From Desulfotignum sp. (lineage in GTDB: Bacteria; Desulfobacterota; Desulfobacteria; Desulfobacterales; Desulfobacteraceae), in the NCBI GenBank assembly GCA_011390635.1, contig JAABSA010000025.1, positions 1-54,076 on the forward strand: a stretch of 54,076 bases of DNA, in the 5' to 3' direction. How positions within the stretch are numbered: position 1 is the stretch's first letter; each line of letters starts with the position of its first letter. Positions 7,853-32,575 of the stretch are shown piece after piece. A program made the position numbers and the translations under genes. The notes below the pieces were generated by a model. That model did no database searches. It saw nothing but the letters and a program-made list of their open reading frames with translations, and had not been told where the DNA came from.

Positions 7853-9394
7853 ATGAAGTCGAACATGCTTGCGCTTGTCATGATGCTGGTTGGTTTTTTC
7901 ATTTTTTCAGCAGCGGTTTTTGCAGGGGATATTGCCCCGGAACAGACCCATAACGGCGACCAGGCAGCGCTGGAGCAGGCATTGCATCCAAGTGATCTTG
8001 GATTGCAAACAGATCATGGTGCAGATGCCGCCCACAGCGGCGGGCATGGACACCCGGACCTGGGTAAGGTGCTGCCGTTGTACGCCTGCATTCCGTTTGC
8101 CTGTATGCTGCTGTCCATTGCACTTTTGCCCCTTGTCGCCGGCACCTTCTGGCACCACCATTTCGGCAAGATTTCCGCTTTCTGGGCCGCTACTCTGGCC
8201 ATTCCTTTTATAGTGGTCTACAAAGGGGATGCAGTCTACGAAATTCTCCACATCATTCTGGCGGATTATGTACCGTTTATAATCCTGCTGTGGGCGTTGT
8301 TCACAGTATCCGGCGGGATTCTTTTGCGGGGTACCCTCCGGGGCACTCCTGTGGTGAACACCGGCATTATTCTTCTGGGCACCATTCTGGCATCCTGGAT
8401 GGGAACTACCGGTGCAGCCATGCTGCTGATCCGGCCGTTTCTGCGGGCCAATGATTTTCGAAAAAACCGGACATTCATGGTGGTGTTTTTCATATTCCTG
8501 GTGGCCAATATCGGTGGGTCATTGACCCCTCTGGGTGATCCGCCCCTGTTTTTAGGGTTCCTCCACGGAGTCAGTTTTTTTTGGACCCTTAAGATTCTTC
8601 CCCATATGCTGCTGAGCAGCGGGGTGCTGCTGGTGATCTATTTTTTGCTGGATACCTGGTTTTTCAAAAAAGAAGGGGCAGTGGTGCCTGATGACGGGGA
8701 AAAGAAACCATTACGTCTGGTGGGAACGTATAATTTTATCTTTTTGGGCGGCATAGTAGGCGCGGTGCTCATGAGCGGCATCCTGGATCTGGGGTATGTC
8801 AACACCTTCGGGGTGCACCGGGCCATCCAGGACTGGATGCGGGACATCAGTCTCATCTTGCTGGGCGGCCTGTCCCTGTGGGCAACGCCCTGGGCCCTGC
8901 GGGAGGAAAATGAATTTTCCTGGTTTCCCATCATAGAGGTGGCATACCTGTTCATCGGAATTTTTATTACCATGATCCCCTGTCTGCTGCTGCTGAAGGC
9001 CGGACCGGACGGGGCCTTTGCCTTTCTTATCGCTGCAGTGAAAGAACCGTTTCATTATTTCTGGGTCACCGGGGTCCTGTCGGCATTTTTAGACAACGCT
9101 CCTACATATCTGACCTTTTTCAACACCGCATTGGGCAGTTTTTATGCGGGTATGCCGGAATCAGCTTCCGTGCCCCTGCTGATGACCGATAAGATGATAT
9201 ATCTCCAGGCCATTTCAACCGGGGCCGTGTTTTTCGGGGCCGTCAGTTATATCGGCAATGCCCCCAATTTCATGGTACGGTCCATTGCGGCCGAATCCGG
9301 TACTATCATGCCCAGTTTTTTCGGGTATATTCTCAAATATTCTCTGGTGTTTCTGATTCCCACCTTTGTGGTTGTCACCCTTATATTCTTTTAA
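7853..9394 (+). CDS. Na+/H+ antiporter of the NhaD/ArsB-citrate transporter superfamily
   Basis: The protein has 513 residues. A cleavable or anchoring N-terminal hydrophobic segment is followed by a His-rich periplasmic stretch (residues about 25-70, with HSGGHGHPD), then 11-12 membrane helices. Ion-transporter superfamily motifs are present: SWMGTTGAAMLLIRP, then NIGGSLTPLGDPPLFLGFL, and a C-terminal SAFLDNAPTYLTF with FGAVSYIGNAPNFM. These paired loops resemble the NhaD family and mark two inverted repeats. The family exchanges cytoplasmic Na+ (or Li+) for protons. A good AGGAG site precedes the ATG. It heads a same-strand run of signalling genes and the Mrp-type antiporter, which fits a sodium-cycle role. 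An anion substrate cannot be fully excluded. Confidence 0.85.
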   Translation: MKSNMLALVMMLVGFFIFSAAVFAGDIAPEQTHNGDQAALEQALHPSDLGLQTDHGADAAHSGGHGHPDLGKVLPLYACIPFACMLLSIALLPLVAGTFWHHHFGKISAFWAATLAIPFIVVYKGDAVYEILHIILADYVPFIILLWALFTVSGGILLRGTLRGTPVVNTGIILLGTILASWMGTTGAAMLLIRPFLRANDFRKNRTFMVVFFIFLVANIGGSLTPLGDPPLFLGFLHGVSFFWTLKILPHMLLSSGVLLVIYFLLDTWFFKKEGAVVPDDGEKKPLRLVGTYNFIFLGGIVGAVLMSGILDLGYVNTFGVHRAIQDWMRDISLILLGGLSLWATPWALREENEFSWFPIIEVAYLFIGIFITMIPCLLLLKAGPDGAFAFLIAAVKEPFHYFWVTGVLSAFLDNAPTYLTFFNTALGSFYAGMPESASVPLLMTDKMIYLQAISTGAVFFGAVSYIGNAPNFMVRSIAAESGTIMPSFFGYILKYSLVFLIPTFVVVTLIFF

Positions 9395-9436
9395 TATACT
9401 GTCCTTATAAAAGGCATTACCCATAAAGGAGCAGCC

Positions 9437-11500: not shown

Positions 11501-11511
11501 GAAAATCGCCC

Positions 11512-13062
11512 ATGTCAGCCAATAAAATATTGATTGTGGATGATGAACAAGCCATTGTCCGGCTGTTGTCCATGTCCCTGAAAAGTGACGGGTATGAGAC
11601 ATGCACCGCCTTCAGCGGAGAAGAGGCTTTGGATGTGCTCAAAAAACAATCACCTGATATCGTGGTGACCGATATCAAAATGCCGGGTATGGACGGCCTT
11701 GCACTGCTTAAAAAAATCAAGGAACTGTATCCGGAAAAAGAGGTGATCATTGTCACCGGCCACGGGGACATCGATTCTACCATTACGGCCCTGCAGTACG
11801 GGGCCAGTGATTTTATCAACAAACCGGTGCGGGACGAGGCCCTGGCCATTGCCCTGGACCGGGCCAAAACAAAAATCACCATCAGACAACAGCTGGCCTC
11901 CTATACCCAGGACTTAGAAGACAAAGTGGCGGAAGTCACAAAAGAAATCCGGCGCAAATCCAATTTCCAGCGCCTGCTGATTCACTCCAGCCACGATGCC
12001 ATTGTGGCCTTTGACCAGGATTGGCAGATCGTGGTGTACAACCCGGAGGCGGCAAGGATATTTGACAAAAAAGCCGGTGAAGTCCTCGGGAAAATGACCA
12101 TTGATGATCTGTATACCCCGGAACTGGCACAATATTTCAGAAAAGAGGCCAAAAACAAAGCCAATGACCGGGATATGCCCTGGCAGGAAATGGCCATGGA
12201 AACCCGGGAGAAAAAGCAGATTCCGGTAAGGTATGCCACCAATGTGCTCCATGAAAAAAATGAATTCATGGGCATTGTCAATTTTTTCCAGGATCTGACA
12301 GAGATCAAGCGGCTGGAAAAGGAACTGATCCAGTCAGAACGGATGGCAGCCATCGGCCAGACCGTATCAGGCCTCGCCCATTACGTGAAAAATATTCTCA
12401 TCGGCCTCAAAGGCGGCAGCTACGTGGTGGATGTGGGGTTGCAGAACAATGACATGGAAAAGCTGAACACAGGATGGCAGACCATCAAGAAGAATATCAC
12501 TCGGGTGGGCGACCTGACCCAGGATATGCTCACCTATTCAAAGGAGCGCAAACCTGAACCTGAGCTGTGCTATCCCAATGAGATCGTGGAAGAGGTGGTG
12601 GACCTGGTGACCGATTTTGCAAATGGCCATAATATTGACATTGTAAAGAGCTGTGATCCGGAAATGGGTGAAATGTATCTGGATACCAGAACCGTTCACC
12701 GGGCCTTGCTGAATCTGGTGAACAACGCCATTGAAGCCTGCCTGGAAGAAGAAACCGAGTCCAGGCAATTTACGGTGAAAATTAAAACCGGAAAAGCCGA
12801 TGATGGATCAGCCGTGTTCGAAGTTTCCGATAATGGGTGCGGTATGGATGCAGAAACCAAAGGCAAACTGTTCACCCCCATGTTCAGTTCCAAAGGGGGC
12901 AAAGGTACAGGTCTGGGACTTCTTGTCACCAAAAAACTGGTGGCAGAGCATAACGGCACCATTGACATTGAAACCAGTTTGGGGTATGGGTCTGTGTTTA
13001 CCATGAAGCTGCCTGAGAAACCAGGGACCGCCCGGGATGTAAACGATAAAAAAGAGGTGTGA
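11512..13062 (+). CDS. Receiver-PAS-histidine kinase (REC at N-terminus)
   Basis: The 516-residue cytoplasmic protein begins with a receiver domain whose phosphoacceptor is Asp54 (VVTDIKMPGMDG). A helix-rich linker near residues 120-150, a PAS domain (about 150-265), an unusual H-box GLAHYVKNILIGLKGG with His290, and an intact ATPase domain (NLVNNAIEAC, SDNGCGMD, GTGLGLL) follow. Such REC-kinase proteins take phosphate from an upstream kinase and use it to tune their own kinase activity. The neighbour 11 bases upstream is the obvious partner, and the next gene, one base after the stop, is a lone receiver that could be its target. Confidence 0.92.
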   Translation: MSANKILIVDDEQAIVRLLSMSLKSDGYETCTAFSGEEALDVLKKQSPDIVVTDIKMPGMDGLALLKKIKELYPEKEVIIVTGHGDIDSTITALQYGASDFINKPVRDEALAIALDRAKTKITIRQQLASYTQDLEDKVAEVTKEIRRKSNFQRLLIHSSHDAIVAFDQDWQIVVYNPEAARIFDKKAGEVLGKMTIDDLYTPELAQYFRKEAKNKANDRDMPWQEMAMETREKKQIPVRYATNVLHEKNEFMGIVNFFQDLTEIKRLEKELIQSERMAAIGQTVSGLAHYVKNILIGLKGGSYVVDVGLQNNDMEKLNTGWQTIKKNITRVGDLTQDMLTYSKERKPEPELCYPNEIVEEVVDLVTDFANGHNIDIVKSCDPEMGEMYLDTRTVHRALLNLVNNAIEACLEEETESRQFTVKIKTGKADDGSAVFEVSDNGCGMDAETKGKLFTPMFSSKGGKGTGLGLLVTKKLVAEHNGTIDIETSLGYGSVFTMKLPEKPGTARDVNDKKEV

Positions 13063-13063
13063 T

Positions 13064-13456
13064 ATGGGTAGAAAAGTGCTGGTGGTGGACGATGATCCGG
13101 ATGTCAGATCATTTGTTGTCACGGTTCTGGAAGAAAACCAGTATACGCCTTTGATGGCGTGTGACGGTGTGGAAGGTCTGGAAATGATCCAGAAAGAAAT
13201 GCCGGACCTGGTGATACTGGATGTGCTCATGCCCCGGGGAAGCGGCATCCGTCTGTACCGTCACCTGAAAACAGACGATATCTTGAAAGCCATTCCAGTG
13301 ATCATGTTTACCGGTATTGCCCTGCGCTCTTTTCTCAAGTCCCAGAAAGTGCTGGAAGAGTTCAAAGGAGAAAAAGTGCCGGAACCTGACATCTACCTGG
13401 AAAAACCTGTGGAGCCCCAGGAACTGGTGGATGCCATCAGAAAAAAAATCAGCTGA
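13064..13456 (+). CDS. Stand-alone response-regulator receiver
   Basis: The 130 residues make a single receiver domain with the acidic pair VVDDD near residues 7-11, phosphoacceptor Asp53 (VILDVLMPRG), Thr in MFTGIA near residue 86, and Lys in LEKPVEP near residue 113. No output domain is attached. The ATG lies one base after the upstream kinase stop, with GAGGTG as ribosome site, so the pair is translationally coupled. It should act by protein contact or as a phosphate sink or shuttle. Confidence 0.9.
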   Translation: MGRKVLVVDDDPDVRSFVVTVLEENQYTPLMACDGVEGLEMIQKEMPDLVILDVLMPRGSGIRLYRHLKTDDILKAIPVIMFTGIALRSFLKSQKVLEEFKGEKVPEPDIYLEKPVEPQELVDAIRKKIS

Positions 13457-13512
13457 TGCTGTAAAAAAAGCACTTGTTCGGCGCATGTGACAGGACAGGG
13501 ACAGGAGGTTTC

Positions 13513-14388: not shown

Positions 14389-14428
14389 AGATTTTTTAAA
14401 GGGTGTGATTTTTCCACAAAGGGTTTTT

Positions 14429-14896
14429 ATGAAATTATTATTTATAGATGATGAACAGACATTTTTAAAATACATTGCCAAGCGGCTGATGCTGGAGGGG
14501 TTTGAAGTTAAAACCACGTTTTCAGGTGAAGAAGGGGTGGCAGCAGCGGCGCAAGAGGTGTTTGACGTGGCAGTGGTGGACCTGCAGATGCCCGGCATTG
14601 ACGGGATCGAGGTGCAGCGCCGGCTCAAGGATCTGCAGCCGGATCTGCCCTGTATTGTGCTCACCGGTCACGGAAGCGTGGAAAACGCGCTTGAAAGCGG
14701 CAAATATAATGCGTTTAAATTTCTGTCCAAGCCCGTGGATATGGATACCCTGATTGAGACCATCCAGGCGGCCCATGATTTACGACGTCTGAAGGAAACA
14801 GCCGGTACCCCGGATGCGGGGGCTGCATCTGAAAACCAGGGGCCGGTTTCCCGGTTTTTTAAAAAATTCCGCAGGATATATGGTGTAGAAAAATAG
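14429..14896 (+). CDS. Stand-alone response-regulator receiver with basic tail
   Basis: The 155 residues form one receiver domain with the acidic pair FIDDE near residues 5-9, phosphoacceptor Asp51 (VVDLQMPGID), Thr in VLTGHG near residue 79, and Lys in LSKPVDM. A tail of about 40 residues ends in a basic stretch (FFKKFRRIYGVEK) and shows no known DNA-binding fold. The start at 14429 gives the receiver its usual N-terminus (MKLLFIDDEQ); the in-frame ATG 90 bases upstream would fall inside the stress-protein gene. The next gene is mrpE, 88 bases downstream. Confidence 0.88.
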   Translation: MKLLFIDDEQTFLKYIAKRLMLEGFEVKTTFSGEEGVAAAAQEVFDVAVVDLQMPGIDGIEVQRRLKDLQPDLPCIVLTGHGSVENALESGKYNAFKFLSKPVDMDTLIETIQAAHDLRRLKETAGTPDAGAASENQGPVSRFFKKFRRIYGVEK

Positions 14897-14984
14897 TGTA
14901 ATAAACAGCGGCCTGTGTCATGACCGTTTTTTGTGAACGGACAGGTACGTGAAAATCCGGTAATAAGAAAAAAGGAAGTGGGTG

Positions 14985-15530
14985 ATGAAAGAAAACAGAT
15001 CTGAAAAACAAGGAACCTGGAGCAGGAAAAAATCGGGATCAGCCTTATTTTCATTTTGTATCACCTTTGTTTTTATGTTTGTAACCTGGATCATCTTGTC
15101 AGGCAAATTCGATCCTTTGCTGCTGGGCCTGGGAATTTTTTCAAGTGCCATTGTGGCCTGGTTTTTCCATGATCTGTTGTTTGCGGGTGCCACCATGGAA
15201 CAGGCCGGGGTGTTTGTCCGGTTCTGCCGGTATATGCCCTGGCTTGTCATGGAGATCATTAAAGCCAATTTTCATATGTTGTATCTGGTGTTTCATCCCA
15301 GGATGCGCCAGCTCATCGATCCACATATTATCCAGTTCCAGACCGGTCTGAAATCTGATATTGCCATCACTACCCTGGCCAATGCCATTACCCTGACCCC
15401 CGGGACGGTCACCATCACCGCCACCTCGGAGGGCGGGTTCCGGGTTCACAGCATCGATCGGAAAAGCGCAGAAGGACTTCCCGGTGTCATGCGGGACCGG
15501 GTGGCCCATGTATACGGAGAAAACAGATGA
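14985..15530 (+). CDS. mrpE: Multisubunit Na+/H+ antiporter subunit E (MrpE/MbhA-like)
   Basis: This 181-residue membrane protein has an N-terminal pair of helices and the family signature near residues 115-145 (IITLxPGT-like form ANAITLTPGTVTI). Subunit E is needed for assembly or full activity of the Mrp complex. The ATG at 14985 follows AAAGGAAG; a GTG one codon earlier is possible. The stop overlaps the mrpF start by four bases (ATGA). It opens the antiporter operon in the order E-F-G-D'-E'B-C-D, the order seen in archaeal Mbh membrane modules. Confidence 0.9.
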   Translation: MKENRSEKQGTWSRKKSGSALFSFCITFVFMFVTWIILSGKFDPLLLGLGIFSSAIVAWFFHDLLFAGATMEQAGVFVRFCRYMPWLVMEIIKANFHMLYLVFHPRMRQLIDPHIIQFQTGLKSDIAITTLANAITLTPGTVTITATSEGGFRVHSIDRKSAEGLPGVMRDRVAHVYGENR

Positions 15531-16152: not shown

Positions 16153-16157
16153 CCAAG

Positions 16158-16403
16158 ATGCTGTGGCCCATTGACCTGATCGTATTGACCTTTGTGATTT
16201 TCTGCGCCATTGCGGCCATTACCGTCCGGGACCTTTTGGGAACCGCCATTTTGTTCAGCGCGTATTCCTTTTTGATGTGCCTGTTGTGGGCTGTCATGGG
16301 GGCGGTGGATGTGGCATTCACCGAAGCATCCGTGGGAGCCGGGGTGAGCACGGTATTTTTTGTGGCCGCAGTGTTTCGGACCAGCAGGAGGACAAAGGAT
16401 TGA
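16158..16403 (+). CDS. MbhD-like subunit (DUF4040; equivalent to part of the MrpA C-terminus)
   Basis: These 81 residues make two or three helices with the signature TEASVGAGVSTVFFVAAVFRT, typical of the MbhD/DUF4040 segment found inside the C-terminus of MrpA in Bacillus-type antiporters and as a separate gene in Mbh and group-2 Mrp systems. It starts 5 bases after mrpG and its stop overlaps the next gene by four bases. Being separate shows that the large MrpA protein is split here. Confidence 0.85.
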   Translation: MLWPIDLIVLTFVIFCAIAAITVRDLLGTAILFSAYSFLMCLLWAVMGAVDVAFTEASVGAGVSTVFFVAAVFRTSRRTKD

Positions 16404-17224
16404 AATTCATCGGCACTGTCATCGTCTGTCTTACCGGCGGACTGTTGTTATACGGCACCATGGACCTGCCGGACTGGGGTGATCCCGGATCCCCGGCATC
16501 CACCCACCTCTCTGATTATTATATTGAACATATTATGGAACAAACCCAGGTGCCAAACCTGGTGACCGCGGTGCTGGCAGATTACAGAGGATATGACACC
16601 ATGTTTGAGACCGCGGTGGTGTTCTGCGCCGGTCTTGCATGTTTTCTTTTGCTCAGGGATTTTCGGCCAAAAAAAGACCGGTATTTCCGGCATGTGCCCA
16701 CCGGGGTGATGCTGCATTTTAAAAACCCGGACACCCGCATGATTGCGGACAATGAATTTGAGCACATGGACAAAGACTGGGTCCCATCGGATATGATCAT
16801 CAAAACCGTGTGCCGGATTCTGATTCCCTTTATCCAGATTTACGCGTTGTATGTGGTGGCCCACGGGGATTTTTCTCCGGGGGGCGGTTTCCAGGGCGGG
16901 GTGATCTTCGGATCCAGCCTGATTTTAATGGCCATTTCCTATAATTTGAAAACCCTGGTGAAACGGGTGACGGAAAAATTCTTATCAATTTTTGCCGCCC
17001 TCGGGGTTTTGATTTACGTGGGGCTCGGGGTGGGTGCCATGGTCATGGGCGGGCATTTTCTGGATTACGGCATGCTGGCACCCCTGCTGCCGTCCGACCC
17101 CGGCCATATCCGTGCCTTAGGAATGCTGGGGGTGGAGATCGGTGTGGGCATTGCCGTAATGGCCGTCATGGTGATTATTTATGTGAATATTGTCTCTGAA
17201 GGCAGACACGATGAAGGACTGTAG
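16400..17224 (+). CDS. mrpB: MbhE-MrpB fusion subunit of the cation antiporter
   Basis: The protein has 274 residues. About 1-95 resemble MbhE: two helices with the periplasmic LSDYYIEHIMEQTQVPNLVTAVLADYRGYDTMFE stretch typical of the end of MrpA (only its first and last parts, LSDYYIEH and DYRGYDTMFE, are diagnostic). About 130-270 are MrpB, with IYALYVVAHGDFSPGGGFQGG as its hallmark. The start is TTG at 16400, supported by AGGAGG at 16386-16391 and by the four-base overlap with the upstream stop. In archaea MbhE and the MrpB equivalent MbhF are usually separate. Confidence 0.85.
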   Translation: MKFIGTVIVCLTGGLLLYGTMDLPDWGDPGSPASTHLSDYYIEHIMEQTQVPNLVTAVLADYRGYDTMFETAVVFCAGLACFLLLRDFRPKKDRYFRHVPTGVMLHFKNPDTRMIADNEFEHMDKDWVPSDMIIKTVCRILIPFIQIYALYVVAHGDFSPGGGFQGGVIFGSSLILMAISYNLKTLVKRVTEKFLSIFAALGVLIYVGLGVGAMVMGGHFLDYGMLAPLLPSDPGHIRALGMLGVEIGVGIAVMAVMVIIYVNIVSEGRHDEGL

Positions 17225-17233
17225 GAGAAACCC

Positions 17234-19286: not shown

Positions 19287-20762
19287 ATGGAAATCCTCAT
19301 CTCAATCAAACCGCTGCTGACTGTCCTGGTCCCGCTGCTGGTCATCCCCATTTTGGTGTCATCATCACAAAAACCCAATGTCAGGGAAGCCTGGATATTC
19401 GGTGGCGGGTTCGTCATGTTTTTTCTGGTGGCATCCATGGTGCCGGCGGTACTGTCCGGCAGTAAAATTGTATTTACCCTTTTTAAACTGGCCCCCGGGG
19501 CGGATATCGCCTTTGCCGTGGACGGCCTGGGCATGCTGTTCGCCCTGGTTGCATCCAGTTTGTATATCGTCACCTCCCTGTATTCCATCGGGTACATGCG
19601 GGGGCTCAAGGAACATGGCCAGACCCGGTTTGTATCCTTTTTTGCGTTGGCCATCTCCGCCACCATGGGGGCGGCATTTTCCGCCAACCTGCTCACCCTG
19701 TACCTGTTTTATGAAATACTGTCTCTGGCCACCTATCCTTTGGTGGCCCACCATGAAGATGCAAAATCCAAAATTTCCGCCCGGCGGTACCTGGTGTTTA
19801 TCCTGGGCACCTCCATCGGCCTGGTGCTGCCGGCCATGATCTACTGCTACCATGTCACCGGCACGCTGGCGTTTTCCACGGCCGGTATTTTTGCGGGCCA
19901 GCTGTCAAAACCGGCTGCCACCGTGCTTTTGCTCATGTTTGTGTTCGGGTTTGCCAAGGCAGGGATCATGCCGTTTCATTCCTGGCTGCCGGCAGCCATG
20001 GTGGCCCCCACCCCGGTGAGTGCGCTTTTGCATGCCGTGGCCGTGGTCAAGGTGGGGGTGTTTTCCATTGTACGGGTCATCACCGGGATCTTCGGGGTGG
20101 ACCTGCTGGCCGCCTTCAATTTAGGGACAATGGTGATGGTCATTGCATCCTTTACCATTATCGTCAGCTCCTGCATCGCCCTGTCCCAGGATGAACTCAA
20201 GCGCAGGCTGGCCTTTTCCACCATCAGCCAGTTGTCCTATATTGTGTTCGGCGTGGCCCTTTTGTCTCCTTCGGGCCAGCTGGGCGGGGTGATCCATATT
20301 CTCATGCACGCATTCGGCAAAATCACCTTGTTTTTCTGTGCCGGTGCCATTTTTGTGGCCACCGGCAAAAAATATATCTCCCAGATGAAAGGCCTGGGCA
20401 GACAGATGCCGGTAACCTTTGCCGCATTTTTTATCGGATCTTTGGGAGTGATCGGACTGCCCCCCACGGGCGGGTTTTACAGCAAGTGGAATTTGATCCT
20501 GGGCACACTTGAGGCCGGGCAGACCGTTTTCATGGCGGTGCTGCTGGTATCCTCTTTTTTGAACGCATTTTATTTTCTGCCAATTGTGTATCAGGCGTTT
20601 TTCGGCAAAGGGAAAGACGACCTTTCCGATGCCCCGGTAACAATCCAGGAAGCCAATCTGTGCCTGGTGGTTCCCCTGGCCATCACGGCCCTGGCATCCA
20701 TCGGGCTGTTTTTCTTTCCCCGGATGTTTGTGGATCTGATCGTTCTGGGTTTGAACCTTTGA
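19287..20762 (+). CDS. MrpD/NuoN-like antiporter subunit, second copy
   Basis: The 491-residue protein has about 14 helices and the same family residues as the first copy: Glu in LTLYLFYEILSLATYP, Lys in FAKAGIMPFHSWLPAAMVAPTP and VVKVGVF, and basic residues in QDELKRRLAFST. The PxxAxLLHxxxVVK pattern is closer to MrpD/NuoL consensus than that of the first copy. It starts 80 bases after the first copy with no overlap. Its presence adds a second likely proton channel to the complex. Confidence 0.88.
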   Translation: MEILISIKPLLTVLVPLLVIPILVSSSQKPNVREAWIFGGGFVMFFLVASMVPAVLSGSKIVFTLFKLAPGADIAFAVDGLGMLFALVASSLYIVTSLYSIGYMRGLKEHGQTRFVSFFALAISATMGAAFSANLLTLYLFYEILSLATYPLVAHHEDAKSKISARRYLVFILGTSIGLVLPAMIYCYHVTGTLAFSTAGIFAGQLSKPAATVLLLMFVFGFAKAGIMPFHSWLPAAMVAPTPVSALLHAVAVVKVGVFSIVRVITGIFGVDLLAAFNLGTMVMVIASFTIIVSSCIALSQDELKRRLAFSTISQLSYIVFGVALLSPSGQLGGVIHILMHAFGKITLFFCAGAIFVATGKKYISQMKGLGRQMPVTFAAFFIGSLGVIGLPPTGGFYSKWNLILGTLEAGQTVFMAVLLVSSFLNAFYFLPIVYQAFFGKGKDDLSDAPVTIQEANLCLVVPLAITALASIGLFFFPRMFVDLIVLGLNL

Positions 20763-20838: not shown

Positions 20839-20994
20839 ATGACAATCAAAGACAAACATAACAACGAAGACTGGGAGATGCTGGGCCATGAGCCGGTGCC
20901 AGGATACAAGACCGCGTTTTACATTGCGGTGCTGGTGTCGGTGATCTATCTGGCAGTGGCATTTTTTTTCGGCGGCGGCGGTGGCGGCCATTAA
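20839..20994 (+). CDS. Small single-helix membrane protein in the antiporter operon
   Basis: This short frame encodes 51 residues: a charged N-terminus (MTIKDKHNNEDWEMLGHEP), one clear helix over about residues 24-42 (TAFYIAVLVSVIYLAVAFFF), and a GGGGGGH end. It falls in the 317-base gap between the second and third MrpD-like genes, where nothing else is long enough. No family is recognised. The hydrophobicity, the hydrophilic start and the tight position argue that it is a real accessory subunit of the complex. Confidence 0.6.
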   Translation: MTIKDKHNNEDWEMLGHEPVPGYKTAFYIAVLVSVIYLAVAFFFGGGGGGH

Positions 20995-21079: not shown

Positions 21080-21325
21080 ATGAAAAAAGAGTTGACTATT
21101 TTTGACAAACCAAAGAATGTAAAAATCCTGCTGAGATGCTTTTACGGCTCCCTGGTTGTTTTGCTGATTGCGGAATTTTTCATTCATCCGCATCCGGCGT
21201 TTTATTTTGAACAGATCAAGGGATTTTCTGCTGTGTACGGTTTTTTTTCCTGTGTGCTGCTCATTTTTTTAGCCAAAATCCTGCGCCTGATGGTCATGAA
21301 AAAAGAGGATTACTATGACCGGTAA
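21080..21325 (+). CDS. Small two-helix membrane protein in the antiporter operon
   Basis: The 81-residue protein has two predicted helices, about residues 19-37 (FYGSLVVLLIAEFFIHPHP) and 51-68 (YGFFSCVLLIFLAKILRL), joined by a short loop, with a charged C-terminus. It overlaps the next antiporter gene by 11 bases, which is strong evidence for co-translation. The family is not recognised. It may be an assembly or gating subunit together with the 51-residue protein just upstream. Confidence 0.75.
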   Translation: MKKELTIFDKPKNVKILLRCFYGSLVVLLIAEFFIHPHPAFYFEQIKGFSAVYGFFSCVLLIFLAKILRLMVMKKEDYYDR

Positions 21326-23087
21326 TCTTTTGCCCCCGGCCCTGATATTCATTGCCGCAGCGCTTTTGATCCCTTTTCTGCGGGGCAGAACCAAAGCAAT
21401 GTATATGCTGCTGATTCCTGTGGTAAGTTTTACCATCCTCATGAAAATCCCCATGGGCAATACCTGGATCTGTGATTTCTGGGGATACACCCTGATCATG
21501 GGGCGTATTGACAAACTGTCCCTGGTGTTCGGGTATATTTTTACCATCATGGCATTTTTGGGCGTTCTGTTTGCCTTGAAGGTAAAAGACGACCTGCAGC
21601 ATGTGTCCGCCATTGTGTATGCCGGCGCCACCTTAGGCGTGGTGTTTGCCGGGGATTTTCTCACCCTGTACCTGTTCTGGGAAATCATGGCGGTAAGTTC
21701 CACCTTTTTGATTATTGCCTCCAGAACAGATGCAGCCCGGAAAGCCGGGTTCCGGTATATCCTGGTGCATCTGGTCGGCGGATTGTTTCTGCTGGCCGGC
21801 ATTGTTTTGTACATCCAGCAGACCGGCACCACTGCCTTCGACTACATCGGGCTGTCCGGCACCGCATCTTACCTGATTTTCATCGGCATCGCCCTGAACG
21901 CGGCAGCCATCCCCCTGCATGCCTGGCTGCCGGATGCCTATCCCATGGGCACCCCCACCAGCACAGTTTTTTTGAGTGCATTCACCACCAAGTCAGCCGT
22001 GTATCTGTTGATCAGAACCTTTCCCGGCACGGAGCTGCTCATCTGGATCGGGGCGTTCATGGTGTTTGTGCCCATCTTTTATGCGGTCCTGGAAAATGAT
22101 ATCAGAAGGGTGCTGGCCTACAGTCTTTTGAACCAGATCGGGTTCATGCTGGTGGGCACCGGTATCGGCTCCCAGCTGGCCCTGAACGGGGCCGTGGCCC
22201 ATGCCTTCTGCCATATTCTTTACAAAGGCCTTTTGTTCATGGCAGCCGGATCAGTTCTCCAGATGACCGGCAAAATCAAATGCACCGAGATCGGCGGGCT
22301 GTACAAGACCATGCCCTTGACCTGCCTGTTCTGCATTGTGGGGGCTGCCTCCATCTCCGCGTTCCCGCTGTTTTCCGGGTTTGTGTCCAAATCCATGGTG
22401 GTGACGGCAACGGTGAATGAAAACCTGGTGCTGGTGTACCTGATCCTGCAGTTTGCATCTGCAGGCGTCTTCCACCATGCCGGCATCAAGGTGCCGTTTT
22501 TCACTTTTTTCGGCCATGATGCAGGCATCCGGGCCAAGGACCCTTCCTGGAATATGGTGCTGGCCATGGGGATCGCCGCATTCGCCTGTATTTTCATCGG
22601 GGTGTTTCCCCAGCCGCTGTATAATCTTCTGCCCTTTACCGTTGAGTATATCCCCTACACCGGGGCCCATGTGGTGGGACAGCTGCAGCTGCTCATGTTC
22701 GGGGCCCTGGCCTTTGCACTGCTGATTCTTTCCGGGTATTATCCGCCTGAAATCAAATCCATCAACCTGGATGTGGACTGGACCTACAGAAAGCTGGGAA
22801 GCGCTGCCTACCGGACGCTGGATACCGCTTTGAACGCGGCAAACCGCAGAGCAGAAACCATATTGATGGCCCTGGTCAAAGGGTTCAGCCGCTTCTTTTT
22901 GCAGATCATTGTGCACATGGCCCTGTTTTTTTCGGTCAACCTGTGGCTGGTCCAGGGATACAGAGACAAGCACCTGGCTTTGAAAAAACAGCGGCTGTAT
23001 ATGGATTTGGTTCACGGTTCCCTGCCCATCGGCATGGGAGCGGCTGTGGCGGTATCATTTGTTATTCTGGTATATGTGTTAACCTAA
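21315..23087 (+). CDS. MrpA/NuoL-like antiporter subunit, third copy
   Basis: With 590 residues this is the longest of the three antiporter-like subunits. Family residues are Glu in LTLYLFWEIMAVSS, the IPLHAWLPDAYPMGTPTST loop, Lys in FTTKSAVYLL and the charged ENDIRRVLAYS. The last 130 residues contain an amphipathic, charged stretch (DLDxxYRKLGSAAYRTL-like, about residues 490-520) and a final helix, resembling the lateral-helix end of NuoL or the MrpA N-terminal part. Since no full MrpA is present, this protein probably fills that place. It ends 28 bases before the first cyclic-nucleotide-fold gene. Confidence 0.87.
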   Translation: MTGNLLPPALIFIAAALLIPFLRGRTKAMYMLLIPVVSFTILMKIPMGNTWICDFWGYTLIMGRIDKLSLVFGYIFTIMAFLGVLFALKVKDDLQHVSAIVYAGATLGVVFAGDFLTLYLFWEIMAVSSTFLIIASRTDAARKAGFRYILVHLVGGLFLLAGIVLYIQQTGTTAFDYIGLSGTASYLIFIGIALNAAAIPLHAWLPDAYPMGTPTSTVFLSAFTTKSAVYLLIRTFPGTELLIWIGAFMVFVPIFYAVLENDIRRVLAYSLLNQIGFMLVGTGIGSQLALNGAVAHAFCHILYKGLLFMAAGSVLQMTGKIKCTEIGGLYKTMPLTCLFCIVGAASISAFPLFSGFVSKSMVVTATVNENLVLVYLILQFASAGVFHHAGIKVPFFTFFGHDAGIRAKDPSWNMVLAMGIAAFACIFIGVFPQPLYNLLPFTVEYIPYTGAHVVGQLQLLMFGALAFALLILSGYYPPEIKSINLDVDWTYRKLGSAAYRTLDTALNAANRRAETILMALVKGFSRFFLQIIVHMALFFSVNLWLVQGYRDKHLALKKQRLYMDLVHGSLPIGMGAAVAVSFVILVYVLT

Positions 23088-23115: not shown

Positions 23116-23622
23116 ATGGTAAAAATACAGGATTTAAGACAGATTTTCATATTGGAGTCCATGCCGGAACACCTGCTGACCCTCATCGGGCAGGAGGCCC
23201 AGCTTTCCATTTTCAGCAGCGGCACCTGCCTGTTCCGGGCAGGAGAGGCAGTGGATACCTTTTACATGGTCATCATGGGCCAGGTGGCCCTGACCGTGGC
23301 CCTGAGCAAGGATGTTGACGTGATTCTGGAAAACATCCAGTCCGGCCGCACCTTCGGATCGTCCGCATTGATTTCCGGCGAACCGGCCGCCTACACCGCT
23401 ATCTGCCAGGAACCCTGCGAAACCATCACCCTGTCCGGCGCCCGTATGCAAAAACTGTTTGAAACCAACCATGAACTGGCTTTTTACATGATGGCCGGTG
23501 TGGCCCGGCAATATAAAAAAACCATGGACAGCCGGGCAAAAATGATCATGAAAACCCTGGAAAGACACCCCGGGATGAAAGCATCCATCCATGACATTGA
23601 AAAACTTACCCCTGCATATTAA
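23116..23622 (+). CDS. Cyclic-nucleotide-binding-fold protein with degenerate binding cassette (copy 1)
   Basis: These 168 residues make one CRP/PKA-type beta-roll domain (about 15-125) and a helical tail; there is no helix-turn-helix. The phosphate-binding cassette reads FGSSALISGEPAAYTA at residues 80-95, where family members that bind cAMP have Glu after FG and an Arg-Ser/Thr-Ala. Both the Glu (Ser82) and the Arg are missing. Binding of a cyclic nucleotide is therefore doubtful, and a structural or non-nucleotide sensing role is likely. It follows the antiporter genes on the same strand and has a paralogue next to it. Confidence 0.85.
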   Translation: MVKIQDLRQIFILESMPEHLLTLIGQEAQLSIFSSGTCLFRAGEAVDTFYMVIMGQVALTVALSKDVDVILENIQSGRTFGSSALISGEPAAYTAICQEPCETITLSGARMQKLFETNHELAFYMMAGVARQYKKTMDSRAKMIMKTLERHPGMKASIHDIEKLTPAY

Positions 23623-27036: not shown

Positions 27037-27108
27037 GCCTTTTCTCCTGCCGGCTTCTGGTTGTCCGGCAACCCTACCTGCTGGAACCTTGTCACACCAG
27101 AAAACCTG

Positions 27109-27663: not shown

Positions 27664-27786
27664 GGTCTGCCTTCCCTGAAATTAGGGTGTATTATCGATA
27701 CAGCCTGTTTCAAAACCTGTATTTTTTCTGCCTCCGGTCCGGTGCCATGAGCGGATGTGTTCACTGCACCGGTCCGGGCAGCAGGG

Positions 27787-29259
27787 TTAACTGATAAGAA
27801 TCGGCATACCCAGCAGGGGCCAGATCAGCAGCACGGCCAGAGCCACCAGGGCCATGAGCAGAATACTGGCCGGAATGCCGTAGCCGAAAAATTCACCACT
27901 GGTGAACTGTCCGGAGTTGTAGGCAATGGCATTGGGGGCGGCCCCCACCAGCAGCAGGAACGGCATGCCTGCGGTGACCAGGGCGGCAAAAACAATTACT
28001 TCGGCTGCAACCCCAAGGTACGGTGCCACCACCAGGGCTACGGGCACGGAGATGGCAATGGCAGCCACGTTCATGATAAAGTTGGTCATGAGCATCACAA
28101 AAAAGGAGATTGCCATGACAAAAACGAACCAGTGGGCCTCTGCGAAAAATCCCAGCCAGTTGATGGCCAGCCACTCGGCTGCCCCGGTCTGCCACAGGCA
28201 GAATCCCATGCTCATGGCACCGGCAAACAGTAATATGATGTTCCAGGGCACATCTTCCAGGTCCCGGATATCTAAAATCCCCACGATGAAAAACAAGATG
28301 GTGGAGACCAGAAGAATCGCGGCTTTGTTAAAGGGTTGCAGCGCCGGGATGAACGACTGCAGGGAAAGAAACAGGATCACACCGAAAATGATGGCCGTGG
28401 CAATGACTTCATGCCGGGTGAACGATCCCATTTCACTACTGAGCTGCCGGGCCTTTTCCCGCAGCCCGGGGATCACGGCTTTTTCCGGTTTGAAAAATAC
28501 CATGAAAAATCCCCATAGCACAAACACCATGATCCAGCCGATGGGAAACATGTAATAGGTCAGTTCGAAAAAAGACACCGTCTTGCTGGTGATCTCTTCA
28601 TAAAACCCCAGAGCCACTATACCCCGGGCCGCTCCCAGCAGGGTGACGATACTGCCGGCACCGGCTACGAACGCCATACCCATGAACAGCCCCTTGCCGA
28701 ATCTGGTGGGGGCTTCTTCATCCGTATACAGGGCATAGATGGACAGCAGCAAAGGATACATGGTGGCAGCCACTGCGGTGTGGGCCATCACATGGGTGAG
28801 CAGGGCCGTTACCACAAAGCATCCCAGGTAGATCATGGAGGTGCGTTCTCCCACGATCATGAGCATTTTATAGGCCAGGCGCTTGGTGATGCCCACCTTG
28901 GTGAACACCGTCCCGATGATCAGAGATCCGAAAATAAAGAGCACTGACGGGTCCATGAAATCCTTGAACGCATCTGCGGCCGGCCGGATGAAAAAAAGGG
29001 CCTGGACCACACCGATGGCCAGGCCGGTCACACCGATGGGCACCACTTCAAATACCCACCAGGTACCAGCCAAAAGGAACAGGGCAATGGCGGCTTTGCC
29101 CTGGGGGGACAGGGTAAAGGCCTTTCCCATGGGATCCACGGCATCGGGCCAGGGAGGGGAAATGTACACTATTGCAAATAAAATTACGCCGATCATCAGA
29201 AACATGATCCGCTTCCAGTCTATCTGAATACCGGATGAGGCTGTCGATTTTGTATTCAT
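27787..29259 (-). CDS. DASS/SLC13-family transporter with altered SNT motifs
   Basis: The 490-residue protein has about 11-12 helices and the overall pattern of divalent-anion:Na+ symporters: VPIGVTGLAI near residue 74, helix-hairpin regions near 150-165 and 390-400, and VGAAPNAIAYNSGQ near 450. The two SNT motifs that bind Na+ and substrate in this family are replaced by AHT (residues 159-161) and MNV (396-398). Substrate (sulfate, dicarboxylate, other) and ion coupling cannot be stated. The gene has a good AGGAG site and its own putative promoter. It lies upstream of the CBS and trk genes on the same strand. Confidence 0.87.
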   Translation of the reverse strand: MNTKSTASSGIQIDWKRIMFLMIGVILFAIVYISPPWPDAVDPMGKAFTLSPQGKAAIALFLLAGTWWVFEVVPIGVTGLAIGVVQALFFIRPAADAFKDFMDPSVLFIFGSLIIGTVFTKVGITKRLAYKMLMIVGERTSMIYLGCFVVTALLTHVMAHTAVAATMYPLLLSIYALYTDEEAPTRFGKGLFMGMAFVAGAGSIVTLLGAARGIVALGFYEEITSKTVSFFELTYYMFPIGWIMVFVLWGFFMVFFKPEKAVIPGLREKARQLSSEMGSFTRHEVIATAIIFGVILFLSLQSFIPALQPFNKAAILLVSTILFFIVGILDIRDLEDVPWNIILLFAGAMSMGFCLWQTGAAEWLAINWLGFFAEAHWFVFVMAISFFVMLMTNFIMNVAAIAISVPVALVVAPYLGVAAEVIVFAALVTAGMPFLLLVGAAPNAIAYNSGQFTSGEFFGYGIPASILLMALVALAVLLIWPLLGMPILIS

Positions 29260-29350
29260 GTGACTCCTGCATTTTTGGTTAAAGTAATCAATAGTTCTAT
29301 ACGCTTAACTATCATAGATCGCTATCCTTTGCCTTTACGTTCATAAATTG

Positions 29351-29384
29351 GTCTTACATAAGACAAGTGCCTGGTTTTTGTCAA
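29351..29384 (-). promoter_or_regulatory. Putative promoter and overlapping operator of the DASS transporter gene
   Basis: Read on the minus strand, TTGACA (29379-29384) and TATGTA (29355-29360) are 18 bases apart. A near-perfect inverted repeat, GTCTTA-2-TAAGAC (29351-29364), covers the -10. Bases on both sides (TTGG and CAAG) loosely resemble GntR/FadR-type operators. No such regulator gene is seen in the window. Confidence 0.45.
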
Positions 29385-29485
29385 GCACAGGTTGGATGGA
29401 ACCCGATATTATCCGATCGTCATCACGGGTTCAAATCACCGCAGCATACAATATGCTGATGAGAATTTATGAAGTGCTCGGAGGG

Positions 29486-29914
29486 TTATCCGCTGAACCG
29501 CTGCAAAATATCCTTGATTTTTTCTTCGGTCTTCTTTTCCACCAGCAGCATTTTATCCGCCTTGGCCTGTTTGATTTTAGCAGCCAGGGACTCTAAGTCA
29601 GCCGGTTTTTCCAACAGATCCGTGGCACCGATTTTCATGGCCTCCACGGTTTTTTCCACTGTGGCATACCCGGTGAGCAGGATAATCTGCAGTTCCGGTT
29701 TTTGGCTTTTAATATTTTTCAAGGCCTGGATCCCGTCCATGCCCGGCATCTTGAAATCCATGACAATAGCGTCAAAGCTTTCTTTTTCCAGCATGGCCAG
29801 GGCCTGATCGGCAGAATCTGCTGTCTTTACCGTCATGCCCCGGGCTTCCATCCGTTCGGACATGATGTCCAAAAATTCTTTTTCATCATCCACAAGCAAT
29901 ACTTTTTCTGACAT
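29486..29914 (-). CDS. Stand-alone response-regulator receiver
   Basis: These 142 residues form a receiver domain with the acidic pair VDDE, phosphoacceptor Asp53 (IVMDFKMPGMDG), Thr in LLTGYA and Lys in LEKPADLE. A short Lys/Glu-rich amphipathic helix ends the protein, with no output domain. GGAGAAAATA precedes the ATG. It is the last gene of a four-gene signalling set and would receive phosphate from the kinase or from the degenerate kinase just upstream. Confidence 0.9.
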   Translation of the reverse strand: MSEKVLLVDDEKEFLDIMSERMEARGMTVKTADSADQALAMLEKESFDAIVMDFKMPGMDGIQALKNIKSQKPELQIILLTGYATVEKTVEAMKIGATDLLEKPADLESLAAKIKQAKADKMLLVEKKTEEKIKDILQRFSG

Positions 29915-29965
29915 TATTTTCTCCTTTTTATAAATACTTCATTGCCGTTTTGGTCCGGCAGATAA

Positions 29966-30649
29966 TCATGCATGATCCGGCCGGATTCTATACAAACAGA
30001 ACCCGTTTCCGGTATTATTTGTTTTCACAGCCATGTGCACACGATCCCGCATGTCCAGGTCTTTGGGCTGGTCAAACAGGGTATCCCAGCCACCGGTCGG
30101 GACGGGATCCAGGGTAAAGCAGATTTCAGGCACCTTCGGGTCCATGCCGAAACTGACCAATACCTGTTTCTGGGTGTCCATTGCCCCATTGTCCAGAATC
30201 TTGCAGGCAATTTCAACTGCCCGAAATATCAGATGAAGCAACCCGAACCGGTGAACTTTAAGACGGCAGGGGACGGTTGCCGGTGTCACGGTCAGAAACA
30301 CCCCATGGTGACGGATGATCCGTGCGGCCAATCCCGCCACCAGATGAACCATCTCTTCCACATCCACGGTTTCTTCGGCATGATCCATGCTGTGTGAGAA
30401 CCGGTTGAACTGTTTTATCATCGTATCGGCCCTTGCCACCTGGTTTCTGATCTTTTCACTAATCCCCAAGGCTTTCCGGGGATCGATGGGGAGGGATCTG
30501 TTTTGGGCGTTGACTGCCAGATCTCCCAGGAGTCCGGCATTTTCATTGATAATGGCAAGAAAATTTTTCATGTCATGGGTGACGGCAGCTGAAACAGCAC
30601 CGAAAAATGTGATTCCGTCCATATCCATGTGCCGGTTATCGTGTTCCAT
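29966..30649 (-). CDS. Histidine-kinase-like protein with degenerate, truncated ATPase domain (ChpT/Spo0B-like phosphotransferase candidate)
   Basis: The protein has 227 residues. A clear DHp-type H-box is at residues 19-33 (VSAAVTHDMKNFLAI, His25), with a second long helix through about residue 95. The C-terminal part has the length and strand pattern of an ATPase fold but lacks the motifs: the N-box Asn pair is replaced (LIFRAVEIA), no DxGxG is present, and only a remnant NTGNGFCLYRI resembles the G2 box before the protein stops. The start at 30649 has an AGGAG site six bases upstream; an in-frame ATG at 30697 lies inside the preceding kinase gene. A phosphotransferase role between the adjacent receivers is inferred. 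Confidence 0.8.
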   Translation of the reverse strand: MEHDNRHMDMDGITFFGAVSAAVTHDMKNFLAIINENAGLLGDLAVNAQNRSLPIDPRKALGISEKIRNQVARADTMIKQFNRFSHSMDHAEETVDVEEMVHLVAGLAARIIRHHGVFLTVTPATVPCRLKVHRFGLLHLIFRAVEIACKILDNGAMDTQKQVLVSFGMDPKVPEICFTLDPVPTGGWDTLFDQPKDLDMRDRVHMAVKTNNTGNGFCLYRIRPDHA

Positions 30650-32132
30650 GAGCGGCTCCTGAAGTATCATCGGCAGGACCGGGCGGGGCCGATACATCTG
30701 GTCTGGGCAGCTGTAAAGAACCGTCCAAAGATGTCTTTCTGACCGCTTTTACCGGCAGCGTCAATATAAAACAGGTGCCTTTGCCCACGCGGCTTTTTAC
30801 TGTAATGTCGCCCCCCATTTCCTTGATCAGGCCATAGGTGATGGCCAGACCGAGTCCGGCTCCCCAGCGGTCGGTCCTGGTAGAATAAAACGGCTCGAAA
30901 ATTTTGGGCAGGTCTTCCGGCGAGATCCCTTTGCCGGTGTCAGACACCTGGATAGTGATCTGGCCGGTGATTTCATGTCTGACACCAATGGTGAGGATGC
31001 CGCTGGTTTCCATGGCAGTGATGGCGTTCTCCGACAGATTCAGAAATATCTGAAGCAGACTGCTGCGGTCACATTCAAACCCGGGTATTGCCGGAACCGG
31101 GGCCACCTGTATGGTGATGCTCCGGTGAAGGGCATCTTTTTCCAGCAGGGCCAGCACCTGGGAGATGACTTCCTCCATATCCACCGGTTCCACGCTGGGC
31201 TCCATGTGCCGGGCAAAATCCAGCAGCTGCCGGGTGATGGTGCCGCACCGCCTTACTGCTTCCAGCACATCTCTGGCAAGGGGCAAAAGTCGCTGGTCTG
31301 GTTCGGCATCTTTGCCAAGGGTCAGCAGATCGATGATCAACCCGGTTTTCTGGTTTATAATTTCCAGGGGATTGTTGATTTCATGGGCCACGCCGGAGGC
31401 GAGCCTGCCGATGGATGCCAGGCGGTTGGCATGTTCCTCGTGGTGGAGGGACTCGATCCGCAGGCGTTCAGATGCGTGAATCCGTCCCACCAGATAGGTG
31501 GCCATGCCCATGATGGCCAGCAGAATCAAACCGATGCTGGCACACAAAAACCATAGCAGTTTGAGCCGGGGTTTGAGCCAGAGATCCCTGAGCCAGTCTG
31601 CCTGGCGCAGCTGCACCAGGATCAGGGGGGTGCCGGGGATTTGTGCAAATCCGGCCAGGACCTTTGTGCCATCCGGAGCCTGGGTTTCGATGATGCCTTC
31701 CGGTCCGGAGAAAAGGCCGGGGTCCATGACGGGCAGGCTTTCAGCGGAGCCGTAATAAGACGAAGGGGTCAACACCCGGCCGGTATCATCCATGAGAAAC
31801 AGATCATGGGGCAAGTCGGATGCCAGAAGGTCAAATGTATCCTGCCACAGGGTTTGGGCCCCGGACACTGCATCTTTTTTTGCCAAAGAAGCGGACATTA
31901 CCGCGGCAAGGGTGTTCAGGCTGGTCCGCATGCCGATACTGGCTTTGGTTTCAATGGTTCGCCGGGTCAGGTTGAAATCCACCAGGGTCATGATGACCAG
32001 AGGAGAAAGGCAGATAATGGAGGTCACCAGTACGATCAGTTTCCATTTGCGTTTGAGATTCAACCCGCTGTGGCTGCTTAGGGTATCTGCGTGATCCCAG
32101 AAAGCGGGTTTGAGAAATTGAAAGGAAATCAT
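30636..32132 (-). CDS. Membrane sensor histidine kinase
   Basis: The 498-residue protein has helices at about 31-54 and 193-215 flanking a periplasmic sensor region of about 135 residues (Cache-like, with FLMDDTGRVLTPSS). The H-box is SGVAHEINNPLE with His250, and the ATPase domain is complete (NLSENAITAM, SDTGKGIS, GAGLGLA). A Pro/Ser-rich tail of about 30 residues ends the protein. The start overlaps the upstream receiver stop by four bases, and its end overlaps the degenerate kinase start by 14 bases, so the three are coupled. Confidence 0.93.
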   Translation of the reverse strand: MISFQFLKPAFWDHADTLSSHSGLNLKRKWKLIVLVTSIICLSPLVIMTLVDFNLTRRTIETKASIGMRTSLNTLAAVMSASLAKKDAVSGAQTLWQDTFDLLASDLPHDLFLMDDTGRVLTPSSYYGSAESLPVMDPGLFSGPEGIIETQAPDGTKVLAGFAQIPGTPLILVQLRQADWLRDLWLKPRLKLLWFLCASIGLILLAIMGMATYLVGRIHASERLRIESLHHEEHANRLASIGRLASGVAHEINNPLEIINQKTGLIIDLLTLGKDAEPDQRLLPLARDVLEAVRRCGTITRQLLDFARHMEPSVEPVDMEEVISQVLALLEKDALHRSITIQVAPVPAIPGFECDRSSLLQIFLNLSENAITAMETSGILTIGVRHEITGQITIQVSDTGKGISPEDLPKIFEPFYSTRTDRWGAGLGLAITYGLIKEMGGDITVKSRVGKGTCFILTLPVKAVRKTSLDGSLQLPRPDVSAPPGPADDTSGAAHGTR

Positions 32133-32575
32133 GGCTGCCAGGTGCCTGTGTCGGGGAGTCTGTCCAGAATCGTGGCAGTTGATGCATGCCGCCGGATTTT
32201 TTCATGTCCCTGGTTGATGGCATCTCCCAGCCGGTCGATATCCACGGGTTTCTGGAAATAGGCCAATGCGCCCAGGTCCATGCAGGTTTTTTTGTCCTGT
32301 TCCGACCCGTGCCCGGTAAGTACAATCACCTGGATAAAGGGATGGGTCTGTTTGACCTGTTTTAACACATCAATGCCGTCCATTCCCGGCATTTTCAGAT
32401 CAACGATCAGAATCTGCGGGGGATCGGACCGCACCTGTGCCAGAGCCGCAGGGCCGTCACATACAGCTCTCGAGTCCATGTTCCGCATCTGGAGGCGTTC
32501 AGCCAGGGTTTGGACGAACTCTTGTTCATCATCCACGAGCAGAATTTTCAACGGCATGTCAGGTTGCACTTTCAT
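32129..32575 (-). CDS. Stand-alone response-regulator receiver, first gene of the minus-strand signalling set
   Basis: This receiver has 148 residues from the chosen ATG; an in-frame start at 32605 would add ten. It shows VDDE near residues 14-17, phosphoacceptor Asp59 (LIVDLKMPGMDG), Thr in VLTGHG and Lys in FQKPVDID. The tail of about 25 residues has no output domain. AAGG lies eight bases before the start at 32575. It shares the ATGA overlap with the membrane kinase, so kinase and receiver are a cognate pair. Confidence 0.88.
   Translation of the reverse strand: MKVQPDMPLKILLVDDEQEFVQTLAERLQMRNMDSRAVCDGPAALAQVRSDPPQILIVDLKMPGMDGIDVLKQVKQTHPFIQVIVLTGHGSEQDKKTCMDLGALAYFQKPVDIDRLGDAINQGHEKIRRHASTATILDRLPDTGTWQP

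What the first reader, a model, noticed from the sequence alone, without database searches (positions are those of the whole stretch)
7853..32575. A ~25 kb block joining Na+/H+ antiport, K+ uptake and anion transport to a dense phosphorelay
A plus-strand run (NhaD-like antiporter, two kinases, two receivers, tandem Usp, Mrp/Mbh-type antiporter, two cNMP-fold proteins) meets a minus-strand run (receiver, kinase, degenerate kinase, receiver, DASS transporter, CBS, TrkA, TrkH). Seen: same-strand order, short gaps and overlaps inside each run. Known: Mrp, NhaD and Trk all set cytoplasmic Na+/K+/pH. Inferred: one control system for membrane energy and ion balance, acting on the transporters by protein contact. 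I do not know of a named system with this make-up.
Basis: partly seen in the sequence, partly recalled or inferred. Interest (0 to 1): 0.75.

Follow-up and report, generated by a model that had tools for sequence, protein, structure and literature searches.

The report
Conserved ion-transport and phosphorelay locus
In a family of marine sulfate-reducing bacteria, genes for sodium, proton, potassium and anion transporters lie in a conserved order together with a set of signalling proteins, which suggests that these cells adjust their ion balance through dedicated phosphate-passing proteins.

Summary
The block is real and lies in a Desulfotignum-like genome. It holds two conserved units. Plus: CitMHS_2 transporter, soluble kinase HK1, REC-PAS kinase, receiver, tandem Usp, receiver RR2, Mrp with three antiporter-type subunits, two cNMP-fold proteins. 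Its order is kept across Desulfobacteraceae and a core recurs in other families; upstream genes are not kept. Minus: RR4-HK3-degenerate kinase-RR3-DASS-CBS-TrkA-TrkH, found elsewhere on the chromosome in several Desulfotignum. The junction is no quirk of this window: TrkH follows the cNMP genes within 15 kb in 16 of 29 assessable loci (one a fragment), and the full order recurs in another genus. New features: a Rossmann-like N-domain in HK1; a degenerate kinase that keeps its histidine but has lost the Asn box, like Spo0B/PhyT; a conserved C-terminal tail on RR2. 'NhaD' is not supported. No stand-alone receiver has a DNA-binding domain. Direct control of transporters is plausible but unproven.

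The parts
7853..9394 (+).
   Evidence: PF16980 586.6 bits; no TIGR00775 NhaD match in the genome
9437..11500 (+). HK1: histidine kinase without an evident membrane span; N-terminal Rossmann-like domain (about 1-104), long helices, PAS-PAS-HisKA-HATPase
11512..13062 (+). RRHK2: receiver-PAS-histidine kinase
   Evidence: Pfam PF00072, PF00989, PF02518; conserved motifs
13064..13456 (+). RR1: stand-alone receiver
   Evidence: PF00072
13513..14388 (+). Tandem universal stress protein (two Usp domains)
   Evidence: PF00582, two stretches
14429..14896 (+). RR2: receiver, variable linker, conserved C-terminal tail KFRxxYGVEK, directly before mrpE
14985..15530 (+). MrpE
   Evidence: PF01899
15527..15814 (+). 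MrpF
   Evidence: PF04066
15808..16152 (+). MrpG (start approximate)
   Evidence: PF03334
16158..16403 (+). MbhD-like small subunit (label by position and recalled Mrp/Mbh order)
   Evidence: ORF found at 65-100% identity in 14 of 35 stretches, the window included; many stretches do not reach this far
16397..17224 (+). MbhE-MrpB fusion (start approximate)
   Evidence: PF20501 and PF04039
17234..17647 (+). MrpC
   Evidence: PF00420
17644..19206 (+). MrpD-type antiporter subunit 1
   Evidence: PF00361; best NCBIfam model PRK12662, under its cut-off
19287..20762 (+). Antiporter subunit 2 (MrpA/NuoL-like by recalled relation)
   Evidence: PF00361, PF00662; best NCBIfam model PRK08375, under its cut-off
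20839..20994 (+). Small ORF, 51 aa, hydrophobic segment
   Evidence: 31 of 35 stretches, window included
21080..21325 (+). Small ORF, 81 aa, hydrophobic segments
   Evidence: 33 of 35 stretches, window included
21315..23087 (+). Antiporter subunit 3 (extra to canonical Mrp as recalled)
   Evidence: PRK12668 718 bits over cut-off 564; no conserved Lys where D1 has K222 and D2 K224
23116..23622 (+). cNMP1: cyclic-nucleotide-binding fold, no further domain
   Evidence: PF00027
23661..24134 (+). cNMP2: same fold
   Evidence: PF00027
24220..25671 (-). TrkH K+ uptake subunit
   Evidence: PF02386
25672..27036 (-). TrkA, two TrkA_N and two TrkA_C stretches
   Evidence: PF02254, PF02080
27109..27663 (-). 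CBS-domain pair protein
   Evidence: PF00571, two stretches
27787..29259 (-). DASS-type anion transporter
   Evidence: PF00939, PF03600; TIGR00785 197.2 vs cut-off 198.6
29486..29914 (-). RR3: stand-alone receiver
   Evidence: PF00072
29966..30649 (-). degK: degenerate histidine kinase, candidate histidine phosphotransferase (start approximate)
30636..32132 (-). HK3: histidine kinase, N-terminal hydrophobic stretches read as membrane anchors
   Evidence: PF00512, PF02518; sequence
32129..32575 (-). RR4: stand-alone receiver
   Evidence: PF00072

Best explanation
The block is two neighbouring conserved gene runs of Desulfobacteraceae that handle Na+/H+ exchange (Mrp, with a CitMHS_2 transporter) and K+/anion transport (TrkAH, DASS), each carrying its own phosphorelay with receiver-only outputs. 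Shown: gene content, conserved order, domain make-up, conserved phosphoryl-site motifs, loss of the Asn box in degK, a Rossmann-like fold (predicted) for the HK1 N-terminus, and the conserved RR2 tail. Inferred: HK1 reads a cytosolic dinucleotide or redox state and, with RRHK2 and RR1, sets the phosphorylation of RR2, which docks by its tail on the Mrp complex (or the membrane beside it) and tunes antiport; Usp and cNMP-fold proteins add inputs of unknown kind. In the second run, HK3 phosphorylates one receiver, degK passes the phosphoryl group on as Spo0B or PhyT does, and the other receiver acts on Trk/DASS. The two runs serve one physiological aim but need not share phosphate.
For: Conserved order across genera: among 41 HK1 loci, the tandem Usp is present in 27 of 27 with at least 5.5 kb after the HK1 start, RR2 in 23 of 27, and the transporter in 32 of 36 with at least 1.5 kb before it (my tally). 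A core in other families. CitMHS_2 and a tandem Usp lie within about 5 kb in 20 of the 24 phylum-sample genomes that hold both, in 10 families (my tally). Upstream-neighbour control 0 of 13. No stand-alone receiver in the block has an output domain in Pfam. degK: invariant THxxKN motif in 11 of 11, hhalign 98.8% to HK3, Asn of the N-box in 0 of 11. HK1 N-domain Rossmann-like. RR2 tail in 20 of 21 distinct complete tails. Precedents: EpsW, a single-domain regulator acting on an enzyme by contact (PMC12802240, abstract); PhyT (PMC5898713, passages).
Against: No expression, interaction or phenotype data. The two runs are apart in several Desulfotignum and in Desulfospira. RR2 is missing after Usp in 4 of 27 loci, two of them with 5.6 kb to spare (L041, L047). 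HK1's last glycine of a GxGxxG motif is mostly Cys, so dinucleotide binding is not shown. The cNMP-fold proteins lack the phosphate-binding Arg of cAMP sites, and Usp lacks one Gly of the ATP motif (motifs recalled; sequences), so nucleotide input is doubtful. The degK cassette recurs beside genes unrelated to ion transport. Outputless receivers may also feed a DNA-binding regulator elsewhere.
Confidence: 0.45

Rival explanations
1. Conserved operons under ordinary transcriptional control: the kinases and receivers form relays whose last step is a DNA-binding regulator coded elsewhere, and the clustered receivers are phosphate shuttles or sinks.
For: Single-domain receivers serve as relay intermediates (Spo0F, SdrG; PMC5898713 passages). 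In D. vulgaris a DNA-binding regulator coded beside a kinase, two Usp-like proteins and a transporter is thought to regulate both of those operons (PMC10102598 passage).
Against: No DNA-binding regulator lies in either run. A pure shuttle would not need the conserved RR2 tail.
Confidence: 0.27
2. Two independent modules that happen to be neighbours in some lineages by inheritance; there is no joint control of Na+ and K+ transport.
For: The minus run is away from the plus run in G003, G005 and G006, and, with foreign genes between DASS and TrkA, in G008 and G011. 12 of 29 assessable loci have neither TrkH nor CBS-DASS downstream, though only 4 of these 12 have more than 15 kb in view.
Against: The same convergent junction recurs in genera g1, g11 and g14, with looser linkage in g8 and g12, more than random order would give, though shared descent explains part of it.
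Confidence: 0.24
3. Chance clustering or an assembly artefact of this window.
For: The window comes from a 98-contig assembly.
Against: The same order, including the junction, is found in other assemblies of other genera (L104, L124).
Confidence: 0.01

Closest known systems
Spo0F/Spo0B and SdrG/PhyT phosphorelays
   Same: Kinase, single-domain receiver, histidine-kinase-derived protein with degenerate ATPase domain that keeps its histidine, further receiver
   Different: All four genes sit in one cassette beside transporters; neither receiver has an output domain; phosphotransfer untested
Mrp (multisubunit Na+/H+ antiporter), Mbh-like arrangement
   Same: Subunits E, F, G, MbhD, MbhE-MrpB, C and antiporter subunits
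   Different: MrpA is split, a third antiporter subunit and two small conserved ORFs are present, no hydrogenase module, and the run carries kinases, receivers, Usp and cNMP-fold proteins (canonical Mrp layout recalled)
EpsW-EpsZ of Myxococcus xanthus (single-domain regulator acting on a membrane enzyme)
   Same: Receiver-only protein proposed to act by contact with a membrane protein
   Different: Target would be an ion antiporter or channel; here a conserved C-terminal tail is the only contact candidate
D. vulgaris DVU0539-DVU0545 (kinase, regulator, two Usp-like proteins, PSE transporter)
   Same: Two-component genes with Usp-like proteins and a transporter in a sulfate reducer
   Different: That regulator binds DNA and the transporter family differs; the passage names no Mrp, Trk or degenerate kinase there

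Membership tests
NhaD Na+/H+ antiporter (TIGR00775) | Match to the curated NhaD model | tested here: not met
   No match in the whole genome at E<=10; the protein matches PF16980 CitMHS_2 at 586.6 bits
Mrp multisubunit cation/proton antiporter | Subunits E, F, G, B, C and D-type in one operon | tested here: met
   PF01899, PF04066, PF03334, PF04039, PF00420, PF00361
Mrp multisubunit cation/proton antiporter | Na+/H+ exchange activity | not testable with these tools
   Needs vesicle assays
Mbh membrane-bound hydrogenase | Hydrogenase subunits in the operon | tested here: not met
   No hydrogenase catalytic family among the Pfam hits of the ORFs given
Trk K+ uptake | TrkH and duplicated TrkA | tested here: met
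   PF02386; PF02254 and PF02080 two stretches each
DASS anion symporter | Match over the TIGR00785 cut-off | tested here: inconclusive
   197.2 bits against 198.6, though PF00939 and PF03600 pass
Spo0B/ChpT/PhyT-type histidine phosphotransferase | Histidine-kinase-derived dimerisation domain with conserved His | tested here: met
   THxxKN in 11 of 11; hhalign to HK3 98.8%
Spo0B/ChpT/PhyT-type histidine phosphotransferase | Degenerate ATP-binding domain | tested here: met
   Neither Asn of the N-box in any of 11 rows at the aligned columns; both invariant in HK3
Spo0B/ChpT/PhyT-type histidine phosphotransferase | Phosphoryl transfer between receivers | not testable with these tools
   Needs in vitro phosphotransfer
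NAD(P)-binding Rossmann domain (HK1 N-terminus) | Fold | tested here: met
NAD(P)-binding Rossmann domain (HK1 N-terminus) | Dinucleotide binding | tested here: inconclusive
   GG(x)xPC loop and an invariant Asp43 after strand 2, but the third glycine is mostly Cys and no Pfam NAD family passes its cut-off

The most novel reading that the evidence does not exclude
A cytosolic kinase with a dehydrogenase-like Rossmann sensor gears Na+/H+ antiport to NAD(H) redox state: it sets phosphorylation of RR2, whose conserved C-terminal peptide docks on Mrp and gates it directly, while a Spo0B-like relay beside it tunes K+ and anion transport.
Probability: 0.25. Interest if true: 0.8.

Novelty: new variant of a known kind. 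Interest (0 to 1): 0.58.

Why it matters
It points to post-translational control of ion antiport and K+ uptake by receiver-only relays in a group of marine sulfate reducers. Their energy budget is tied to Na+ and H+ gradients: Rnf, Nqr and Na+-type ATPase genes are reported in D. phosphitoxidans, though D. balticum is said to lack Rnf and Nqr (PMC4046663 passages), and Rnf-Mrp coupling is proposed in other sulfate reducers (PMC10553843 passage). The Rossmann-sensor kinase, the RR2 tail and the recurrent four-gene relay cassette can each be tested singly.

Tried and rejected
HK1 N-domain by sequence: no significant Pfam or PDB sequence match, and profile comparison with TrkA gave nothing (probability 0.4%); only the fold search was informative. 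First thought, that the junction of the two runs was peculiar to this genome, because several Desulfotignum lack it; the wider set overturned that. Promoter and terminator scans gave more matches than shuffles but no usable boundary. No Rfam riboswitch in the window at gathering threshold. The CitMHS_2 protein has no PDB sequence match. Literature: searches listed no paper that from title and abstract start describes this gene cluster, and one search found none; of six papers opened I saw one abstract and passages of five. Most subscription journals are not held. The plain Foldseek search never ran.
Full report
What is there. The plus run reads CitMHS_2 transporter, HK1 (PAS-PAS kinase), RRHK2 (receiver-PAS-kinase), receiver RR1, tandem Usp, receiver RR2, MrpE, F, G, MbhD, MbhE-MrpB, C, three Proton_antipo_M subunits, two cNMP-fold proteins. 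Two small ORFs lie before the third subunit (31 and 33 of 35 stretches, window included). The minus run reads, in transcription order, RR4, HK3, degK, RR3, DASS, CBS, TrkA, TrkH. No stand-alone receiver has an output domain in Pfam. The first transporter is not NhaD by the curated model.

Organism. The window is on contig 23 of a 4.09 Mb, 98-contig genome. Named relatives at 75-82% identity in the HK1 N-domain are Desulfotignum MAGs; others are Desulfobacula, Desulfospira joergensenii and unnamed Desulfobacteraceae. Genus codes g1, g14 and so on are those; I read g1 as Desulfotignum, g14 as Desulfobacula and g10 as Desulfospira from contig lengths shared.

Plus run is conserved. The order is kept in the same genus and in other genera. 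Of 41 loci found by the HK1 N-domain (many are short), those with at least 5.5 kb after the HK1 start hold the tandem Usp in 27 of 27 and RR2 in 23 of 27; L025, L041, L047 and L048 show nothing mapped after Usp although 3.9, 5.6, 5.6 and 1.4 kb remain. Those with at least 1.5 kb before HK1 hold the transporter in 32 of 36; L045, L050, L051 and the diverged copy L058 do not (my tally). L025 has also lost RRHK2 and RR1, and L030, L035 and L043 hold an extra HK1-like kinase before RR2. Control: in 13 loci outside the genus, the four genes upstream of the block are found in 0 of 13, the transporter in 12, RRHK2, RR1 and Usp in 13.

Wider distribution. In phylum samples of 247 genomes 32 hold a tandem Usp and 53 hold CitMHS_2; 24 hold both, and in 20 of these the two lie within about 5 kb, in 10 families (my tally). 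In some (family f44 for one) the Usp beside CitMHS_2 is a second, less similar copy (39-40%) and the copy beside the kinases lies on another contig. I fetched 20 Usp regions from 19 of the 32 genomes: HK1, RRHK2 and RR1 relatives lie beside Usp in 11 of 20, Mrp genes in 9, CitMHS_2 in 10; regions of families f48, f71, f72 and f55 show no kinase set, and L066 and L079 show little but Usp. The unit thus looks modular: transporter plus Usp, then kinases and Mrp, then RR2 and the cNMP-fold proteins in Desulfobacteraceae.

Minus run and the junction. DASS has close relatives in 46 of 59 relatives, degK in 49 of 59 (many weak or to paralogues) and TrkH in 46 of 59. RR4-HK3-degK-RR3-DASS-CBS-TrkA-TrkH is complete in G003 and G005; G006 lacks CBS; in G011 and G008 CBS is missing and other signalling genes lie between DASS and TrkA, and the G008 stretch is cut at degK. 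In none of these does it follow the plus run; in G011 the two are about 0.68 Mb apart on one contig. Searching the family by the third antiporter subunit found 64 of 86 genomes. I mapped 35 of these 64 at the junction; 34 carry a cNMP gene (L123 does not) and 29 have at least 1.5 kb beyond it. Of the other 29 genomes, six were fetched (L115, L117, L119, L128, L130, L131) but show no cNMP gene in view and were left out; the rest were not fetched for this. TrkH lies convergently within 15 kb in 16 of 29 (one, G005, only a fragment), within 200 bp in 11; G023 has CBS-DASS instead; 12 have neither, but 7 of these 12 have under 5 kb in view, one 8.6 kb and four over 15 kb (G006, G008, G011, G021). 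The full order is seen in the window and in G330 (L104, with about 4.7 kb between TrkA and CBS in the distance table), and DASS-CBS-TrkA-TrkH in G035 (L124). The block is thus probably an old arrangement that some lineages split; shared descent means that the 16 are not independent.

Mrp detail. Subunits D1 and D2 keep K222 and K224; D3 has no conserved Lys at the matching place but keeps E123, K226 and K359 (the role of these residues is recalled). NCBIfam PRK12668 is passed by D3 at 718 bits.

Mechanism. Best reading: two conserved transport runs, each with a built-in relay that ends in receiver-only proteins, hence possible action on the transporters by contact, with RR2 the strongest candidate. 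The contact step is inference. Precedent: EpsW (PMC12802240 abstract). In D. vulgaris a related mix of kinase, Usp-like proteins and transporter uses a DNA-binding regulator (PMC10102598 passage), which keeps the transcriptional rival alive.

Noticed in passing
window 32769-34736 (-): Peptidase U32 gene next to the minus run; U32 is also near DASS or cNMP2 in G023 (L100), G026 (L108) and G027 (L091).
   Followed up: partly
window 4817-7018 (-): MASE11-PAS kinase with a C-terminal receiver, upstream of the block; at this place seen only in Desulfotignum loci among those mapped.
   Followed up: partly
window 50201-50388 (+) and 53581-54076 (+): 6S RNA, and a 16S rRNA gene cut by the end of the window.
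   Followed up: no
L004 2082-2458: Adjacent fragments of cNMP2 and TrkH in G005, whose intact TrkH lies on another contig: a possible relic of the ancestral junction.
   Followed up: partly
L133 7362-10759: Second kinase-receiver-degK-receiver set in the same genome, beside HGD-D and BadF-type genes.
   Followed up: partly
L015, L112, L114, L118: Extra copy of the third antiporter subunit, convergent with the Mrp run, beyond cNMP2; TrkH follows it in L114 and L118.
   Followed up: no
L092 about 13110: Second DASS copy in the window's genome, 93% identical, without TrkA or TrkH in the fetched stretch.
   Followed up: no
window 21315-23087: The third antiporter subunit lacks the conserved Lys that the other two share, although it is conserved itself.
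   Followed up: partly
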